NCBI RefSeq assembly: GCF_020532675.1
Contig: NZ_JAJAVE010000001.1
Span: 1,488,001 to 1,552,000 of the forward strand
DNA length: 64,000 bases
Reading direction: 5' to 3'
From: Methylobacillus gramineus
Lineage (GTDB): Bacteria > Pseudomonadota > Gammaproteobacteria > Burkholderiales > Methylophilaceae
Under the pieces are notes generated by a model, which saw nothing but the letters and a program-made list of their open reading frames with translations, made no database searches and had not been told where the DNA came from. The translations under genes and the position numbers were made by a program. Shown here in pieces: positions 33,729-46,515 of this stretch; positions within the stretch are counted from its first letter, which is position 1, and each line of letters begins with the position of its first letter.

Positions 33729-34451
33729 CTATTGCTTATGACTAAGCTTGAATATTTTATTCCGGTAAGCCAAGGTCAATAAGAAAATCACCATTATGGC
33801 CACCCAGCCTGACCACAATGTATGGCTCAGGAAATGAGCGCCACGCATTTGCTGTATCCAACCCATGGAGAGACCTATGCTCAATCCCCCGATAAATACC
33901 CAGGCGGCCTTTCTAGGATTGTGCGGCAGCCAAAACACTGCAATTGAAGCCAGCCACAAACCTGTGCTTGCATGCCCGGCAGGAAAGCAATGTCCGGCAT
34001 GCCAACCTACAGGAATATGGTCAAACATTTTGAGGTAAGGCAGATGACCTCCATAGCGTTCGATTTCCCAAGGGCAGCTCAACGCAGAGTGGCGCTTAAG
34101 GCCACGAATCACGGCAGGAACCAATACTGAGGATAAGGCAATCAGCTGCAGGCGATAGCGAACAAAATCCGAGATCTGACGTATACGATAGACTCGGTCA
34201 ATAATCACCAGCGCCAGCATCAGCAATCCACTATTGATAATGATGCTCTTCAGCCACTCATGCGCAAAATCTGTAGCAAACCAGGCATTACGCCACGGGA
34301 AATCGTTCAGGTGTTTGTCAAAAAACCAGTCCTCCAGTTGCAAATCCATCTCTGTGAAATGTTCCAGAAAAAGCAGCAGTAGCGCAGAGATCAATAAACC
34401 GCTCACAATTGTGCGGTAAGGCAAGCTACTCATAGCATTATCCACGACCAT
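33729..34451 (-). CDS. PAP2-family membrane phosphatase
   Basis: A 240-residue protein with about six membrane segments and the three PAP2 motifs: KRHSALSCP, FPAGHAS (PSGH-like) and MRGAHFLSH. Relatives remove phosphate from undecaprenyl, lipid A or phosphatidate substrates. The ATG at 34451 has an AGGAG site 6 nt upstream and overlaps the sulfatase stop by 14 nt, so the two genes are translationally linked. A shared role in modifying lipid A or a periplasmic glycan is inference. Confidence 0.88.
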   Translation of the reverse strand: MVVDNAMSSLPYRTIVSGLLISALLLLFLEHFTEMDLQLEDWFFDKHLNDFPWRNAWFATDFAHEWLKSIIINSGLLMLALVIIDRVYRIRQISDFVRYRLQLIALSSVLVPAVIRGLKRHSALSCPWEIERYGGHLPYLKMFDHIPVGWHAGHCFPAGHASTGLWLASIAVFWLPHNPRKAAWVFIGGLSIGLSMGWIQQMRGAHFLSHTLWSGWVAIMVIFLLTLAYRNKIFKLSHKQ

Positions 34452-36471
34452 GTGGCTCTCCTGCGGCAAGCACACGGTGCGGATGATGGAATTTCAACTC
34501 CCCATGCTTGAAGGCATTGGACGCAGTCTGATAATAGGCAATCGCCTCCTTCAGCAACTGTGAGTCTACAGGTGCCGGCGTAGCTTCATAACTTGCAGGG
34601 TCGATCTTGAATGCCTGCACCTTGCCCTTGGGCGACAGCACAATCAAGTGATCATGCTTGTAATATCCCAGATCCTGGTAGTTACTGATAAATGCACGCG
34701 GTTCAGCCAAGTGCTCAGCAAACAGTGACTCGCCATAGAAAGTATCTTGAGGCTGGCCCAGAATCTGCATCAGCGTAGGCGCAATATCAATCTGGCTGGC
34801 CATGCGGCTGTACTCGCCTGGCTGTAGCATGTCAGGTGCGTAGAAAATCAGTGGGATTTGGTATTTGCCCACTGGCAGGCTGGTTTTCCCTGCCACCGAA
34901 GCACAGTGATCGGCCACAATCACAAACAGCGTGTCCTTGAACCATGGCTTGGCCTTGGCCTGTGTAATAAAACGTCCTATCGCATAATCGGTATACTCAA
35001 TCGCCCCTTTCCGTGTGCCCTGTTCTGCCTGCACTCTATGCTCCGGGAAGGTATAAGGCCTGTGGTTGCTGGTGGTCATGATCTGGGCCATGAATGGCCT
35101 GCCCTCAGCACTGGCCCGATCCAGCTCGTGCAAGGTATTGTCAAACAGGCTTTCATCCGCCACGCCCCAGATGTTTTCTGTCGCAATACTCTTGGGATCA
35201 AAATCAGTACGATCAACGACACGGTAATCATTGCCGCGGAAGTAGTGATTCATATTGTCAAAATACCCATACCCGCCATAAATGAAATAACTGGCAAAGC
35301 CCTGGTCTTGCAGCAACTCCCCCAATGTGGCCAAGTGTTCATTATTCGGTCTATGGATAATCGCTTGCCCAGGAATGGGAGGTGTCCCAAGAGACAAAGC
35401 CTCCAGGCCACGTACCGTGCGCGTGCCTGTTGCATACAGATGGCTAAATCGCAGGCCTTCACTGGCAATTTTGTCCAACTGGGGCGTCAACTGTTGATTG
35501 CCGCCATAGCTACCTAGGTACTCCGCAGAAAGACTTTCTACTGTAATCAGTACAATATTTTTAGGCCTACGCGCAAACGACGATGGTAATGCGGTTTGCG
35601 TCGCATGACTCTCAATGGGAGAGGCCCCGTTCAAACTCGCCAGATGTACAGGCATTGACCCCGGCACCTGTCTCCCGGAAGTCACACCTAGCTTAGCCAG
35701 CACCTGCTGGGCATCATTGGGCTTCATGGTGGCATAGAACTTGTCATAATCCAGTTCATTACGTCGCATCGCCGCCGCCAGTGAAAACAAGCCATTGCCA
35801 GCCAGTTCCTCGGCATAGTGGTTAGTGGATGATGATTGATCAAGATTGGCGAACAGAGTAGCCGCTATCGGCAAACCCAAGCCCAATGTCATCATCAGGG
35901 TACGGCCGCGCAAGGTATGTGCTACCACCCTAAAACTCACCCACTTGCGTACTAACAACCACAGCACGGTACTCACCAAGCCTATACCCCCCAACATCAG
36001 TGGAATCGGGTAGGACTCACGGATGTTACCGATCACTTCATGGGTATAAATCAGGTAATCCACCGCAATGAAGTTAAAACGTGTAGTGAACTCCTGCCAG
36101 AAAATAAATTCTGCCACAACACCAAAGATTAGCGCCGCTATTGCGATCAAGAGCATGAACCAGCGCATCCGGTTTGCCCATCGACCAAGACGTAGCCTAT
36201 TTGGTAGAACACTGCTTAATAGGAAAAGTGGCGCAAGGAGATAGGCTAGTGTCCAAATATCAAACCAGCCCCCCATACCCAGTGCGTTGAATGAGCCTTT
36301 CCATGCAAGCTGATCTTGCTGACCCACGTCTACCCACAATGCCAGTCTGAGTAATTGCCACAACACCAGAGCAACTATGGCAAGCACCAAATCAAATGGC
36401 AACGAGCGTTTAAGCGCTGATGACTTGGCAAGAGTAGGAGATAGGCGTGATAAAACAGGATGTGAGGACAT
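34438..36471 (-). CDS. LTA synthase-like membrane sulfatase (phosphoglycerol/phosphoethanolamine transferase family)
   Basis: A 677-residue protein. Five N-terminal membrane segments (about residues 15-220) are followed by a periplasmic alkaline-phosphatase-fold domain. That domain has IVLITVESLSAEYLGSYGG (metal site), the probable nucleophile Thr in YATGTRTVRGLEAL, and VIVADHCAS. The family includes LtaS, MdoB and EptA-like enzymes that move phosphoglycerol or phosphoethanolamine onto envelope glycans. Gram-negative members usually act on periplasmic glucans. The start is uncertain (ATG at 36471, or an upstream GTG at 36543). It is operonic with the PAP2 gene. Confidence 0.85.
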   Translation of the reverse strand: MSSHPVLSRLSPTLAKSSALKRSLPFDLVLAIVALVLWQLLRLALWVDVGQQDQLAWKGSFNALGMGGWFDIWTLAYLLAPLFLLSSVLPNRLRLGRWANRMRWFMLLIAIAALIFGVVAEFIFWQEFTTRFNFIAVDYLIYTHEVIGNIRESYPIPLMLGGIGLVSTVLWLLVRKWVSFRVVAHTLRGRTLMMTLGLGLPIAATLFANLDQSSSTNHYAEELAGNGLFSLAAAMRRNELDYDKFYATMKPNDAQQVLAKLGVTSGRQVPGSMPVHLASLNGASPIESHATQTALPSSFARRPKNIVLITVESLSAEYLGSYGGNQQLTPQLDKIASEGLRFSHLYATGTRTVRGLEALSLGTPPIPGQAIIHRPNNEHLATLGELLQDQGFASYFIYGGYGYFDNMNHYFRGNDYRVVDRTDFDPKSIATENIWGVADESLFDNTLHELDRASAEGRPFMAQIMTTSNHRPYTFPEHRVQAEQGTRKGAIEYTDYAIGRFITQAKAKPWFKDTLFVIVADHCASVAGKTSLPVGKYQIPLIFYAPDMLQPGEYSRMASQIDIAPTLMQILGQPQDTFYGESLFAEHLAEPRAFISNYQDLGYYKHDHLIVLSPKGKVQAFKIDPASYEATPAPVDSQLLKEAIAYYQTASNAFKHGELKFHHPHRVLAAGEPHGRG

Positions 36472-36778
36472 TGCAGTTGAATTCCAAATAGTGGTGCTAC
36501 TTATTTGGCAATCTGCATACCAGCTATATTTTTCGCGAGGCACATCTTTTAAATCATCAAAACAAAAACACTATCTTATTGATTTAAATGTATAAATTAA
36601 AAAAATACCTTTGATTCGACCACGCACAATGTCAATACTGAACCTGCTTGAATCAACAAAAATATTCACATTGTTTGCAGACCTTAATCGAGAGTCTGCA
36701 AAAAACGTATGATGGAATCATCCTGCATATTGGAAAATGAATATCAGCGAAAGAAGGCCAACCAAGAAAGCTGCGCTG
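36472..36778. other. Leader/promoter region of the sulfatase gene with an inverted repeat
   Basis: AT-rich sequence between the sulfatase start and the small-RNA terminator. It contains one clear inverted repeat, TTTGCAGAC (36674-36682) and GTCTGCAAA (36694-36702), with an 11-nt spacer. There is no T tract in either direction, so an operator or leader hairpin is more likely than a terminator. No gene is seen. Confidence 0.5.
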
Positions 36779-36880
36779 AAAAAGAAAACGCCGGACATAA
36801 GTCCGGCGTCGTATTTGAGTCTTTCGCCAGGGGGGGATGGCTAAGACTCGAAGATAGACCTACAAGCGGTCTGTCCTTCT
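36779..36880 (-). ncRNA. Candidate sigma54-dependent small RNA with C-rich loop
   Basis: A predicted transcript of about 102 nt, minus strand. From the 5' end: hairpin 1 (arms GAAG...AGACC and GGTCT...CTTC, 36849-36879); hairpin 2 (GAGTCTT at 36849-36843 with AAGACTC at 36823-36817, inner stem GCCA/TGGC) closing an 8-nt loop TCCCCCCC; and terminator hairpin 3 (ACGCCGGAC / GTCCGGCGT, 4-nt loop, 36788-36809) followed by TTTTCTTTTT. A near-perfect -24/-12 promoter ends 12 nt before the predicted start. There is no coding potential. The C-rich loop is the type that pairs with Shine-Dalgarno sequences in mRNA-targeting small RNAs. Existence and targets are inferred, not demonstrated. Confidence 0.72.
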
Positions 36881-36891
36881 AGTGGATATAT

Positions 36892-36908
36892 AGCACTTAT
36901 CGTGCCAG
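36892..36908 (-). promoter_or_regulatory. Sigma54 (RpoN) -24/-12 promoter
   Basis: On the minus strand CTGGCACGATAAGTGCT matches the sigma54 consensus YTGGCACGrNNNTTGCW with a single mismatch. The GG and GC dinucleotides are 10 nt apart as required. The predicted start is about 36880-36881, immediately before the structured RNA. Confidence 0.75.
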
Positions 36909-36974
36909 ATTTAATAAGCCAATGTTTTTTAACAACTTTATAAAACCATACCCGTTTATTTGCATGGGCAATAC

Positions 36975-36990
36975 GTCTCCATATAGAGAC
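36975..36990. promoter_or_regulatory. Promoter-proximal palindrome GTCTC-N6-GAGAC
   Basis: A 16-bp palindrome with identical arms to the one at 37051-37066, centred about 102 bp upstream of the predicted small-RNA start. This is the usual distance for an enhancer-binding protein site of a sigma54 promoter. Confidence 0.6.
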
Positions 36991-37050: not shown

Positions 37051-37066
37051 GTCTCAAAAATGAGAC
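37051..37066. promoter_or_regulatory. Promoter-distal palindrome GTCTC-N6-GAGAC
   Basis: Second copy of the palindrome, 76 bp (about seven helical turns) from the first. It is centred about 178 bp upstream of the predicted start. The base before both copies is C and the base after both is A. Confidence 0.6.
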
Positions 37067-37382: not shown

Positions 37383-37661
37383 TCAGGATGCCAATCCCTG
37401 AGCGGAGGACTCCGGGCTTTTAACAAGTTTCTGCAGCAAGAGATCATCTTTGCGGATCAGCGCGATCATTTCTCGCCACGCCGTTAGCTGCTCATCCTCA
37501 ATTTCGAGCTGTATGCCAAGAATTTCATCGACTGGCGTGCCATCCTTGATGAGTTGGCTCTGTAGCTTGAAGCTCATTCTTGACATCAGGCGCTCTGCTT
37601 TCTTCATACTGAGATTCTGGGCTTTGGATAGATAATCGGCTTTGCAAGATTTGACTTTCAC
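37383..37661 (-). CDS. Small hypothetical protein
   Basis: A 92-residue, helical, charged protein, not recognised. A GTG at 37661 follows a GAGAGAGAG ribosome site; the longer frame from 37730 would put that site inside the gene. Sequence highlights: SKAQNLSMKKAERLMSRMS, VDEILGIQLEIEDEQLTAWREMIALIRKDDLLLQKL. It lacks membrane segments. It lies upstream, on the same strand, of the small-RNA locus. Confidence 0.55.
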   Translation of the reverse strand: MKVKSCKADYLSKAQNLSMKKAERLMSRMSFKLQSQLIKDGTPVDEILGIQLEIEDEQLTAWREMIALIRKDDLLLQKLVKSPESSAQGLAS

Positions 37662-37992
37662 GATGGCTCTCTCTCGTTGACAGTTCAATACTTCATGAAT
37701 GGGTAAGAAATATTGCGGTTTTATGAACATTAGCTAGCAGGCTAACTACTTAATATTTCAATATCATGATGCTTTTGTGTCAGCCACCCTGGGAGTATGC
37801 AGGCATGTTAGAGGTATCTCTTCTTTAATGCGCCATGAAGTGGATTCACACCTCCCAATATCAATACTACACTCAACCACATATCTCTTACCTGAATTGG
37901 CTTGTTAGCTGTCTTTTATTGCATGAATAAAACGCTATCGACCTTAAAGGTGAGGATTGTGTGGAAATAGGACATTGAGACAACAGCACAGA
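37662..37992. other. AT-rich intergenic region, nothing assigned
   Basis: No open frame with a ribosome site was found. A short hairpin TTAGC-tagcag-GCTAA lies at 37730-37745. The region probably contains the promoter of the small hypothetical gene to its left and the terminator of the thioredoxin/HTH pair to its right, but neither is clear. Confidence 0.35.
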
Positions 37993-44159: not shown

Positions 44160-44366
44160 TTATTTCTGAATTTTATTCTGATTAGCCACATGCTTCAAGT
44201 GGTTAAAGGGAATCATGGGGTCATCATCGTCCATCAGGATACGCTGGGCAGGACCCTCTAGATCGTCATATTGCCCGTTCTTGATTGCCCAAAGAATACC
44301 CACGGCAGCGAACCCGATGAATACAAAGGTTAATCCTAGCTGGAGTAATAGTCCCGATAGATTCAT
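44160..44366 (-). CDS. ccoS: Cbb3-type cytochrome oxidase assembly protein CcoS
   Basis: A 68-residue membrane protein with one segment (LLLQLGLTFVFIGFAAVGILWAI) followed by KNGQYDDLEGPAQRILMDDD, the CcoS/FixS signature (xQ(F/Y)DDLExPxxRIL.DDD). CcoS is needed for copper/haem insertion into CcoN of cbb3 oxidase. No ccoNOQP or ccoGHI genes are present here. Its start overlaps the stop of the dynamin gene (ATGA). Confidence 0.9.
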   Translation of the reverse strand: MNLSGLLLQLGLTFVFIGFAAVGILWAIKNGQYDDLEGPAQRILMDDDDPMIPFNHLKHVANQNKIQK

Positions 44367-46321
44367 GCAGCGTTTTCCTCCAAAGCCTCCTCGAAATGAA
44401 GCGCATTATGCATATGCTGGCGTAGCACTTTGAGGTCAGCCATTTGTGCCTGTATGCTTTTCTCTATAGTTTCAAGCTCGCCAATACGGTCTTCCAAGGT
44501 ATCCGTGGCCTTATAGATACGCTTGATACTTTCCAGACGTCTACGCAATTGCAGTTGATGCTCACGTACTTGAGACTCCATTGGCGCAATCACTGCCTTG
44601 AGCCAGTTTTCCACATCATGATTGGCGACTTCATACACATGGATCACACGGCTCGCCAAGGTCTCGAAAAATTTAGACGTCAATGTCATTTTTTCGTTCG
44701 TAATCATATTCAATGCTGTATTGAATTGTTCTCGATACGCTCGTTCCAGCTTTGCCAACTCTTTCTGGTAACGTAGTGTCGAGAATGCCGGCGGCTCTGC
44801 TTTACGCAAGCCATGATCCTTGGCAAATTTTTCATACATGGCATCCATCATGCGCTTGATCTCGTCAATCTGAGTATCAGACTGCACCAGCCTGTCCCTG
44901 AGATCAGCAAAAAAGCCATCCATGGCAGTACGGATACTCTTAGTAAAACTGGCACTGATCATGGTATTGCGGGTATTGGTCACATGCACTTTGAGTGCTT
45001 CCATACCGAGCAGGGTAAATAGCTTATTGGTTTGTTGCGAGAATACGCTACGCAAGGCCTGAAAGCGCTGCAGCCCTTTTTCGAAGATTTCCTTGTCAAC
45101 CTTGACCTTGTTCATCATATGTTCAATGACGTCTTCGTTCTTGCCACGCAAGCCACGCAATTCCTCCAGCTGCTCATTCAAGCTGGCAAGTCGCGCATCC
45201 AGAATCAGGTTGGAATTCCCAACCAGATCATCTATCTCACTTTGGGTATTGTCCCGGACAATTTCCTTTTTGGAAGGAATCAACTCATCCGATAAAGCCT
45301 TCTCAAGTGCTGGCAGACCACTCCGGGCAAGCAAGTCATCATCGCCAGCAATTTTGGCCAACAGACCTTTCTGGGCTGAGATTGGGAAAATCTGGCTTTC
45401 CTGCAAGCCGAGCAATTCTGCACTGGACCTGGTTTGCTTGTTGATCTCACGGCTAATCTCTTCATCGTCGCGCAGCTCATCCCACAAACCATCGATTTTG
45501 TTCAGCACCGCCAAACGCCCTTTTTGCTTCCAGCGCGTTCCGCTGATGTACTGGCGCCAGACATCGATTTCAGACTTGGTCACCCCGGTATCCGCTGCCA
45601 GAATAAACAAGACGGCATGGGCATTGGGCAGCATGTTCAGGGTCAATTCAGGCTCAGTACCAATCGCATTCAGGCCAGGGGTATCAAGAATCACCAACCC
45701 CTGTTCAAGCAAGGGGTGAGGAAAATTAATCACCGCATAACGCCAGCATGGAATATCCACACTGCCATCACTATTGAGGCTCAGAGCATCGTCTGCACTA
45801 TTGGCATCAAACAGGCCATAGCGCTCTGCTTCTTCAACCGTCACACGCTTGGTGCGACTCACCTCCTTGAACACCTCCACCATGCTGTCGCTATTGGCTA
45901 CATCAAACGGGAGAGCAGTCCACTCTTCCGGATAGCGCTTGTATTCAGTCGTGGTAGCGTCAGACGTACGGGTTTCTATCGGAAGCAATTGCAGGGAGGT
46001 TGGCTTGGTGGCGTCGTAAAGTAACTCGGTGGGACACATCGTGGTACGCCCGGCGCTGGAGGGAAGCAGGCGTTGACCATAATCGGGGAAAAAAATGGCG
46101 TTGATTAACTCAGACTTTCCGCGTGAAAATTCGGCAACAAATGCCACATTGAGTTTGTCCTCACGCAAGCGCTCAAGCAGTTGTTGCAGACGCAACTCCA
46201 ATTGCGCATCGTTCAACTCTTGCTCATTGAGCCAGTTGCGATAGTCGCAAATCGTCTCCACCAAGGCTTTACGCCACTCCGTATACACCTCAAAATGACG
46301 TGTCAGCTTATTACCTGCCAT
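44363..46321 (-). CDS. Dynamin-like GTPase
   Basis: A 652-residue large GTPase. The P-loop is EFSRGKSELINAIF (about residues 64-77), followed by Thr in SSAGRTTMCPTE, DTPGLNAIG (G3) and LNKIDGLWDEL (G4). Long helical and coiled-coil regions (about 340-640) correspond to the stalk of bacterial dynamin-like proteins. These proteins bind and remodel membranes. No partner dynamin gene is adjacent; instead it is translationally coupled to ccoS, an unusual pairing. Confidence 0.88.
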   Translation of the reverse strand: MAGNKLTRHFEVYTEWRKALVETICDYRNWLNEQELNDAQLELRLQQLLERLREDKLNVAFVAEFSRGKSELINAIFFPDYGQRLLPSSAGRTTMCPTELLYDATKPTSLQLLPIETRTSDATTTEYKRYPEEWTALPFDVANSDSMVEVFKEVSRTKRVTVEEAERYGLFDANSADDALSLNSDGSVDIPCWRYAVINFPHPLLEQGLVILDTPGLNAIGTEPELTLNMLPNAHAVLFILAADTGVTKSEIDVWRQYISGTRWKQKGRLAVLNKIDGLWDELRDDEEISREINKQTRSSAELLGLQESQIFPISAQKGLLAKIAGDDDLLARSGLPALEKALSDELIPSKKEIVRDNTQSEIDDLVGNSNLILDARLASLNEQLEELRGLRGKNEDVIEHMMNKVKVDKEIFEKGLQRFQALRSVFSQQTNKLFTLLGMEALKVHVTNTRNTMISASFTKSIRTAMDGFFADLRDRLVQSDTQIDEIKRMMDAMYEKFAKDHGLRKAEPPAFSTLRYQKELAKLERAYREQFNTALNMITNEKMTLTSKFFETLASRVIHVYEVANHDVENWLKAVIAPMESQVREHQLQLRRRLESIKRIYKATDTLEDRIGELETIEKSIQAQMADLKVLRQHMHNALHFEEALEENAA

Positions 46322-46515
46322 AGCACCCCCCGATGCTTTTTATTTAGCTAGCACTCTAGCATGGTTGTGTAAATAATCAAATGAATCATACAGCTAATAC
46401 ATATAGTTGAAGCGGTATCCGGACAAGCGGAAACATTGTACGGACAGACGGTATTTTGAAGGCTGATTGCACATTCTGCTATCATCGCCTTTTAGCATTT
46501 TCCGGCACGACAGAC

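What the first reader, a model, noticed from the sequence alone, without database searches (positions are those of the whole stretch)
36779..36908. Possible new sigma54-dependent small RNA with a seven-cytosine loop
Seen: on the minus strand a 17-nt match to YTGGCACGrNNNTTGCW with one mismatch. About 12 nt further on begins a sequence of about 102 nt that folds into three consecutive hairpins. The middle one exposes TCCCCCCC and the last is an intrinsic terminator with TTTTCTTTTT. There is no reading frame. Known: C-rich loops in bacterial small RNAs pair with Shine-Dalgarno sequences, and sigma54 drives a few small RNAs (GlmY/GlmZ in enterics). Inference: a regulated post-transcriptional repressor in this methylotroph.
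Basis: partly seen in the sequence, partly recalled or inferred. Interest (0 to 1): 0.88.

Follow-up and report, generated by a model that had tools for sequence, protein, structure and literature searches.

The report
GlrR-controlled small RNA, C-rich loop
A methanol-eating Methylobacillus carries a small RNA gene, predicted from sequence alone, that an envelope-sensing regulator probably switches on and whose loop of seven cytosines may block translation of a few messages, perhaps including that of the flagellar master switch.

Summary
Minus strand 36881-36779 folds as a 5' hairpin, a hairpin exposing UCCCCCCC, and a terminator (z -6.0; -4.4 without the terminator). All 6 of 6 Methylobacillus genomes held carry it, one (G004) diverged with two C-rich hairpins. 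All three hairpins show compensatory changes. Outside the genus, the 24 covariance-model loci opened have no C6 run at the match and no palindrome.

The sigma-54 match alone is within chance, but its GG/GC is kept in 6 of 6, with two GTCTC-N6-GAGAC palindromes about 160 and 82 bp upstream, two copies degenerate. All 11 strict palindrome pairs in these genomes lie here or behind glrR. The controller is therefore very probably GlrR/QseF, which drives GlmY in enterics; the RNA is not GlmY.

Target is only a lead: flhC has a GGGGGG start region in 4 of 4 Methylobacillus with flhC, and in 2 of 22 readable flhC outside the genus. Those two lack a detected sRNA, and two sRNA carriers lack detectable flhC. 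No transcript evidence exists.

The parts
36779..36881 (-). small RNA gene, about 103 nt (5' end near 36881, 3' end near 36779; not mapped)
   Evidence: fold, homologues in 6 of 6 genus genomes, compensatory changes
36850..36879 (-). hairpin 1 (5' hairpin)
   Evidence: weakest of the three in the pair count, 79.2% of cells paired
36817..36849 (-). hairpin 2, exposes the C-rich loop
   Evidence: 100% of cells paired in 6 sequences
36830..36837 (-). loop UCCCCCCC
   Evidence: at least C7 in the window and four relatives, C8 and C6 in the two hairpins of G004
36779..36810 (-). intrinsic terminator with U tract
   Evidence: 98.3% of cells paired
36892..36908 (-). sigma-54 promoter element (-24/-12)
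   Evidence: one mismatch; GG and GC kept in 6 of 6
36975..36990 (-). near palindrome GTCTCTATATGGAGAC, likely GlrR site
37051..37066 (-). far palindrome GTCTCATTTTTGAGAC, likely GlrR site
36930..36942 (-). weak IHF-like match (consensus recalled), not at the place where the five relatives have theirs
44363..46321 (-). dynamin-like GTPase gene (by eye from its sequence), candidate target; GGGGGG at 46326-46331 just before the start codon

Best explanation
A free-standing small RNA gene. The kinase GlrK/QseE phosphorylates GlrR/QseF; GlrR binds the two palindromes and sigma-54 RNA polymerase starts near 36881 and stops at the terminator near 36779. The RNA then acts in trans: its exposed C-rich loop pairs with G-rich ribosome-binding regions and blocks translation. 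The best candidates are flhC, whose G6 can sit in a short hairpin with a GGGG loop so that a loop-loop contact is possible, and a dynamin-like GTPase gene. Shown by computation: structure, conservation with compensatory changes, promoter spacing, sharing of the paired sites with the glrR locus. Inferred: transcription, binding by GlrR, repression, targets. My split: sigma-54-driven small RNA 0.9; controlled by GlrR 0.85; acts by the C loop on G-rich start regions 0.65; flhC a direct target 0.3. The confidence below is for the chain up to action by the C loop, without any named target.
For: 6 of 6 genus genomes carry the RNA. 6 of 23 pairs have changes on both sides, 8 cells against 3.4 in shuffles, 0 of 500 reach it. 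GG/GC and two palindromes at 80-83 and 158-162 bp in 6 of 6. 11 of 11 strict palindrome pairs in the six genomes lie at the sRNA (4) or directly behind glrR (7), reversed control 0. Regulator: NCBIfam GlrR 621.5 bits, next NtrC 419.8, in an operon with a kinase (HisKA, HATPase_c, HAMP). Published QseF sites TGTN12ACA or TGTCN10GACA (PMC6075780, PMC8745638, passages); window copies read TGTC-N10-GACG. flhC G6 in 4 of 4 Methylobacillus with flhC and the only start shared by blastp between the own and G001 G6 lists.
Against: No transcript data. The sigma-54 match alone is within chance. GlrR's score is below its curated cut-off of 763. The pair count was made on a model-fitted alignment of six sequences, and one of its measures (further pair types) is not above shuffles, 108 of 500. 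For flhC: two genomes of another genus (G007, G029) have the same G6 start without a detected sRNA; G002 and G004 have the sRNA but no flhC match; G6 is also explained as a local translation hairpin; in co-folding the C loop of the window RNA does not engage flhC of the own genome or of G003, only that of G001 and G005 and the GTPase start (co-folding cannot show loop-loop contacts); flhC of G005 is beaten or equalled by 10 of 80 background starts.
Confidence: 0.6

Rival explanations
1. The RNA is real and GlrR-driven, but the G6 hairpins at flhC and the GTPase gene are independent translation elements; the C loop acts on other messages or on a protein.
For: G6 flhC starts in G007 and G029, where model and palindrome searches showed no such sRNA; sRNA without detectable flhC in G002 and G004; local GGGG-loop hairpins in the flhC and GTPase starts of four genomes and in the two g3 flhC starts.
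Against: C6-C8 loops are kept in 6 of 6 and G6 flhC starts are rare: 20 of 22 readable flhC outside the genus have G runs of 1-4.
Confidence: 0.3
2. A GlmY/GlmZ homologue that works through RapZ on glmS.
For: Same kind of regulator, sigma-54 promoter and site type.
Against: No Rfam match to GlmY or GlmZ even at E 10 nor at gathering in the window or homologue loci; not beside qseEGF: about 1.2 Mb away on the same contig; about 103 nt.
Confidence: 0.03
3. A 5' leader or attenuator of the downstream sulfatase gene (34438-36543, same strand).
For: Same strand in the window.
Against: In four of five relatives (G003, G001, G005, G004) the next gene downstream is a convergent homologue, by eye, of the QSregVF_b gene of the window; in G002 the next ORFs are convergent too.
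Confidence: 0.03
4. A chance promoter match before an ordinary terminator; no RNA gene.
For: The promoter match alone is within chance.
Against: Compensated hairpins, kept loop and fixed-spacing palindromes in 6 of 6.
Confidence: 0.03

Closest known systems
GlmY/GlmZ of Enterobacterales with QseE-QseG-QseF (GlrK-GlrR)
   Same: Likely the same kind of activator, a sigma-54 promoter, palindromic upstream sites of the TGTC-N10-GACA kind, and (in five relatives) an IHF-like match beside the promoter (PMC6075780 and PMC8745638, passages)
   Different: No sequence or structure match; not next to the regulator genes; C-rich loop, no sign of glmS or RapZ link tested. In Proteus mirabilis QseF-GlmY promotes swarming and flhDC expression (PMC8745638, abstract and passages), the opposite sign to what I propose for flhC
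S17 of Bordetella and related betaproteobacterial 'toxic sRNAs' (PMC11722255, abstract and passages)
   Same: Betaproteobacterial sRNA that represses messages by pairing
   Different: S17 starts from a sigma-A promoter and represses a sigma-54 activator; the window RNA has no such Rfam hit up to E 10
Other sigma-54-driven sRNAs such as Qrr, CrcZ, NrsZ (recalled, no call)
   Same: Activator-dependent sigma-54 transcription of a regulatory RNA
   Different: No match of the window RNA to any Rfam family at gathering

Membership tests
GlmY/GlmZ sRNA family | Match to the family's covariance model | tested here: not met
   no GlmY or GlmZ among matches up to E 10, none at gathering
GlmY/GlmZ sRNA family | glmY next to qseEGF | tested here: not met
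   sRNA at C1:1524779, glrR at C1:313587
GlmY/GlmZ sRNA family | Action on glmS through RapZ | not testable with these tools
   needs experiment; glmS and rapZ were not looked for
Sigma-54/GlrR(QseF)-controlled genes | -24/-12 element with GG and GC | tested here: met
   6 of 6
Sigma-54/GlrR(QseF)-controlled genes | Upstream sites TGTCN10GACA | tested here: met
   palindrome pairs in 6 of 6, two copies with 1 or 2 mismatches; window copies end GACG in place of GACA
Sigma-54/GlrR(QseF)-controlled genes | Genome encodes GlrR with kinase and lipoprotein in one operon | tested here: met
   GlrR below the curated cut-off; the lipoprotein-like 197-aa ORF is judged by eye and has no family match
Sigma-54/GlrR(QseF)-controlled genes | GlrR binding and rpoN dependence | not testable with these tools
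   needs experiment
Shine-Dalgarno-pairing sRNAs | Exposed conserved C-rich loop | tested here: met
Shine-Dalgarno-pairing sRNAs | Conserved complementary start region in a target | tested here: inconclusive
   flhC 4 of 4 but also 2 genomes without a detected sRNA; GTPase 4 of 4 in the genomes looked at
Shine-Dalgarno-pairing sRNAs | Direct pairing shown by compensatory mutations | not testable with these tools
   needs experiment

The most novel reading that the evidence does not exclude
In the Methylophilaceae the envelope-sensing GlrK-GlrR (QseEGF) system has acquired, more than once, small RNAs unrelated to GlmY with exposed C-rich loops against Shine-Dalgarno sequences: C7 in Methylobacillus, and UUCCUCCC directly behind glrR in genus g19. 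In Methylobacillus the loop meets GGGG-loop hairpins at the start codons of flhC and a dynamin-like GTPase gene, so that envelope stress shuts off flagellar synthesis by loop-loop contact.
Probability: 0.22. Interest if true: 0.75.

Novelty: new variant of a known kind. Interest (0 to 1): 0.57.

Why it matters
QseEGF clusters are reported across Betaproteobacteria (PMC12691602, passages), but in my searches of open papers (listings, with passages of three papers) I saw no RNA output described outside enterics. This would give one, unrelated to GlmY, and a second candidate in a sister genus. It would mean that the wiring (envelope sensor, sigma-54, small RNA) is kept while the RNA is replaced, and that one C-rich loop may tie envelope state to flagella.

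Tried and rejected
Rejected: GlmY homology; leader of the sulfatase gene; spread beyond the genus: 72 of 187 family genomes had a model match at E up to 0.1, but the 24 outside-genus loci opened have no C6 run at the match and no GTCTC-N6-GAGAC palindrome with up to one mismatch, and two more matches in genus g3 are bare terminators. The other weak rows were not opened, so a diverged relative elsewhere is not excluded. CsrA was considered by eye only: no GGA at the G run in the G001 and G005 flhC starts or the GTPase starts.

Target hunt: GGGGGGAT-N0-10-ATG occurs 50 times in the six genomes against 8 for the reversed pattern (two of the 50 are the antisense of the G004 sRNA), but many of the sites opened are not gene starts and a reversed pattern is not a full control, since ribosome-binding sites are G-rich anyway. 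GGGGGG-N2-10-ATG: 76 rows in the own genome, of which 66 unique sites lay in the fetched pieces and 3 in the window (two of these three are followed by ORFs of 13 and 22 codons); 43 rows in G001, 42 unique sites used. The list was cut off within G005. In G001, flgB- and flgD-like genes with G6 starts belong to another flagellar cluster than the one beside flhC. In the four stretches of about 20 kb beside flhC no other gene start with G5 or more was seen, one was seen in the G002 stretch.

flhC control: of 30 loci, 4 are Methylobacillus (all G6); of 26 outside the genus, 22 have a readable start (19, 3 more), 20 with G runs of 1-4 and 2 with G6 (G007, G029); four weak, distant matches (L329, L330, L331, L333) were left out. 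Some starts outside the genus are uncertain.

Duplex ranking: background of 80 mechanically picked ORF starts, the GTPase gene being one of them and the best; flhC own equalled or beaten by 3 of 80, G003 and G001 by 2, G005 by 10.

Failed or useless steps: wrong stretch aligned; faulty scripts; ran on nothing; plasmids: no match; pattern: no match. The flhC odds are set at 0.3 (0.35 in the first attempt) because the recount confirmed that the two G6 exceptions lack a detected sRNA and because the co-folding result against it had been left out; the main confidence and the novel-case odds follow.

Full report
Observation. The element CTGGCACGATAAGTGCT at 36892-36908 has one mismatch to the sigma-54 consensus, but one such match in 64 kb is not unusual: 0.37 expected, 32 of 100 shuffles have at least one. 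Downstream, 36881-36779 folds into a 5' hairpin, a hairpin with the loop UCCCCCCC, and a terminator: -45.7 kcal/mol for the 116-nt stretch given, against a shuffle mean of -26.9 (z -6.0, 0 of 200 as good). Without the terminator z is -4.4. No minus-strand ORF of 20 codons or more lies inside it. Rfam: nothing at gathering and only matches far below gathering scores up to E 10.

Relatives. A DNA search of 61 genomes found it in the own genome and three others of the genus, and in none of the 55 genomes of other genera. A second query on the 6 genus genomes added a fifth, G002. The sixth, G004, showed no DNA match, but its paired palindromes led to a diverged version with two C-rich hairpins, one of which the covariance model scores at 37 bits. 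So 6 of 6 genus genomes held carry it. By equal contig lengths G001 is Methylobacillus arboreus VKM B-2590 and G003 M. caricis VKM B-3158; G005 is by recall M. flagellatus KT (genome size, and two glrR copies 143 kb apart). In the model search of 187 family genomes there were many weak matches outside the genus; the 24 such loci I opened have no C6 run at the match and no palindrome, and two more in genus g3 are bare terminators. The rest of the list was not opened.

Structure test. On the model-fitted alignment of six sequences 95.7% of cells pair (92.1% in shuffles, 2 of 500 as high); 6 of 23 pairs have changes on both sides (3.0, 6 of 500) in 8 cells (3.4, 0 of 500); the covariation score is 0.301 (0.216, 0 of 500); further pair types are not above shuffles (14 against 12.7, 108 of 500). 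Slid controls fall to 26-42% paired. Each of the three hairpins has at least one pair changed on both sides; the C-loop hairpin pairs in 100% of cells, the terminator in 98%, the 5' hairpin in 79%. RNAalifold on the five closer sequences gave the same three hairpins with three compensated pairs, and a small covariation term. The six-sequence alignment was fitted to the structure, which leans the count.

Promoter and regulator. In 6 of 6 genomes the -24 GG and -12 GC are kept, one GTCTC-N6-GAGAC palindrome starts 80-83 bp and another 158-162 bp before the TGGCA element (one mismatch in the near copy of G003, two in the far copy of G002), and the five relatives have an IHF-like match (at most one mismatch, consensus recalled) 19-20 bp before it; the window does not have it at that place. 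A strict paired-palindrome pattern gave 11 sites in the six genomes: four at the sRNA and seven directly behind glrR (two of them in the duplicated copies of G005), with 0 for the reversed control. In the family it hit 22 of 187 genomes; of the 22 loci opened, 21 have a sigma-54-like element 68-99 bp after the start of the second site, one of these (L082) weak. The operon in the own genome is kinase, 197-aa lipoprotein-like ORF (by eye), regulator. The regulator's best NCBIfam model is GlrR, 621.5 bits against 419.8 for NtrC, but below GlrR's curated cut-off of 763. Published QseF sites are TGTN12ACA (PMC6075780, passages) or TGTCN10GACA (PMC8745638, abstract and passages); the window copies read TGTC-N10-GACG. 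The qseEGF cluster is reported in Betaproteobacteria (PMC12691602, passages). GlrR control is inferred from this; binding is not shown.

Neighbourhood. Upstream in the window and four relatives (not G004, whose upstream ORF is another) lies an ORF of about 90-120 codons; the window copy has no Pfam or NCBIfam match. In four of five relatives (G003, G001, G005, G004) the next gene downstream is, by eye, a convergent homologue of the window's QSregVF_b gene; in the window a sulfatase and a PAP2 gene lie between. This argues against a leader RNA.

Targets. Because the loop stays C6-C8 in all six, I looked for G runs at gene starts. Between the own-genome and G001 site lists, flhC was the only orthologous start found by blastp; the dynamin-like GTPase gene at 44363-46321 was added by direct check, its G6 start being the same in own, G001, G003 and G005, though its leader is well conserved as a whole. 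FlhC is confirmed by Pfam. Its start region reads CCGGGGGGAT in two and ATCGGGGGGTATC in the other two of the 4 Methylobacillus with flhC, while the rest of the flhD-flhC spacer differs. Of 22 readable flhC starts outside the genus, 20 have G runs of 1-4 and 2, both of genus g3, have G6. The G6 stretches can fold into short stems with GGGG loops in the flhC and GTPase starts of the four genomes and in the two g3 flhC starts, so a loop-loop contact with the C7 loop is possible, and so is a role of the hairpin on its own. Against the flhC link: no sRNA was found in g3, no flhC in G002 or G004 (G002 does have a flg cluster), co-folding does not engage the C loop with flhC of the own genome or G003, and duplex energies rank flhC high but not uniquely among 80 start regions (3, 2, 2 and 10 of 80 as good for own, G003, G001, G005).

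A parallel. In four genomes of genus g19 (G104, G107, G108, G116) the GlrR-type site pair and a sigma-54 element directly behind a glrR homologue (64-66% identical) are followed by another short RNA-like stretch with the loop UUCCUCCCUUG and a terminator, without Rfam match at gathering. A fifth g19 genome with the site pair, G109, has an ORF there instead; the other g19 genomes searched had no such pair.

Verdict. The finding is real as a conserved sequence feature and very probably a sigma-54, GlrR-dependent small RNA. It works like GlmY in its control but fails the tested family features of GlmY. Action by the C loop is likely; the flhC link is a lead. My paper searches (listings, with passages from four papers) showed no such RNA for this family; only open-licence papers are covered.

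Noticed in passing
L073 (minus strand, 1644), L074 (plus, 1644), L075 (minus, 1645), L077 (minus, 1645): Directly behind glrR in four genomes of genus g19, GlrR-type sites and a sigma-54 element lead into a short RNA-like stretch with a UUCCUCCCUUG loop and a terminator, without Rfam match at gathering.
   Followed up: partly
window 44363-46321 (-): Dynamin-like GTPase gene with a GGGGGG start region inside an AGCAUC-GGGG-GGUGCU hairpin, the same in four Methylobacillus genomes.
   Followed up: partly
L318, L319 (flhC of G007 and G029, genus g3): flhC with the same GGGGGG hairpin start although no C-loop sRNA was detected in these genomes.
   Followed up: partly
L259, L260 (G001 contig C4): A second flagellar cluster in M. 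arboreus whose flgB- and flgD-like genes have GGGGGG start regions.
   Followed up: partly
window 37383-37730 (-): Small ORF upstream of the sRNA, similar by eye to ORFs at the same place in four relatives, without Pfam or NCBIfam match.
   Followed up: no
L030 4875-5360 (-): 161-aa ORF directly behind glrR with its own palindrome pair and sigma-54 element, no Pfam or NCBIfam match; likely the other member of the GlrR regulon.
   Followed up: no
L028 589-765 (+) (G004): The G004 version of the sRNA has two C-rich hairpins in tandem (C8 and C6 loops), about 177 nt long.
   Followed up: partly
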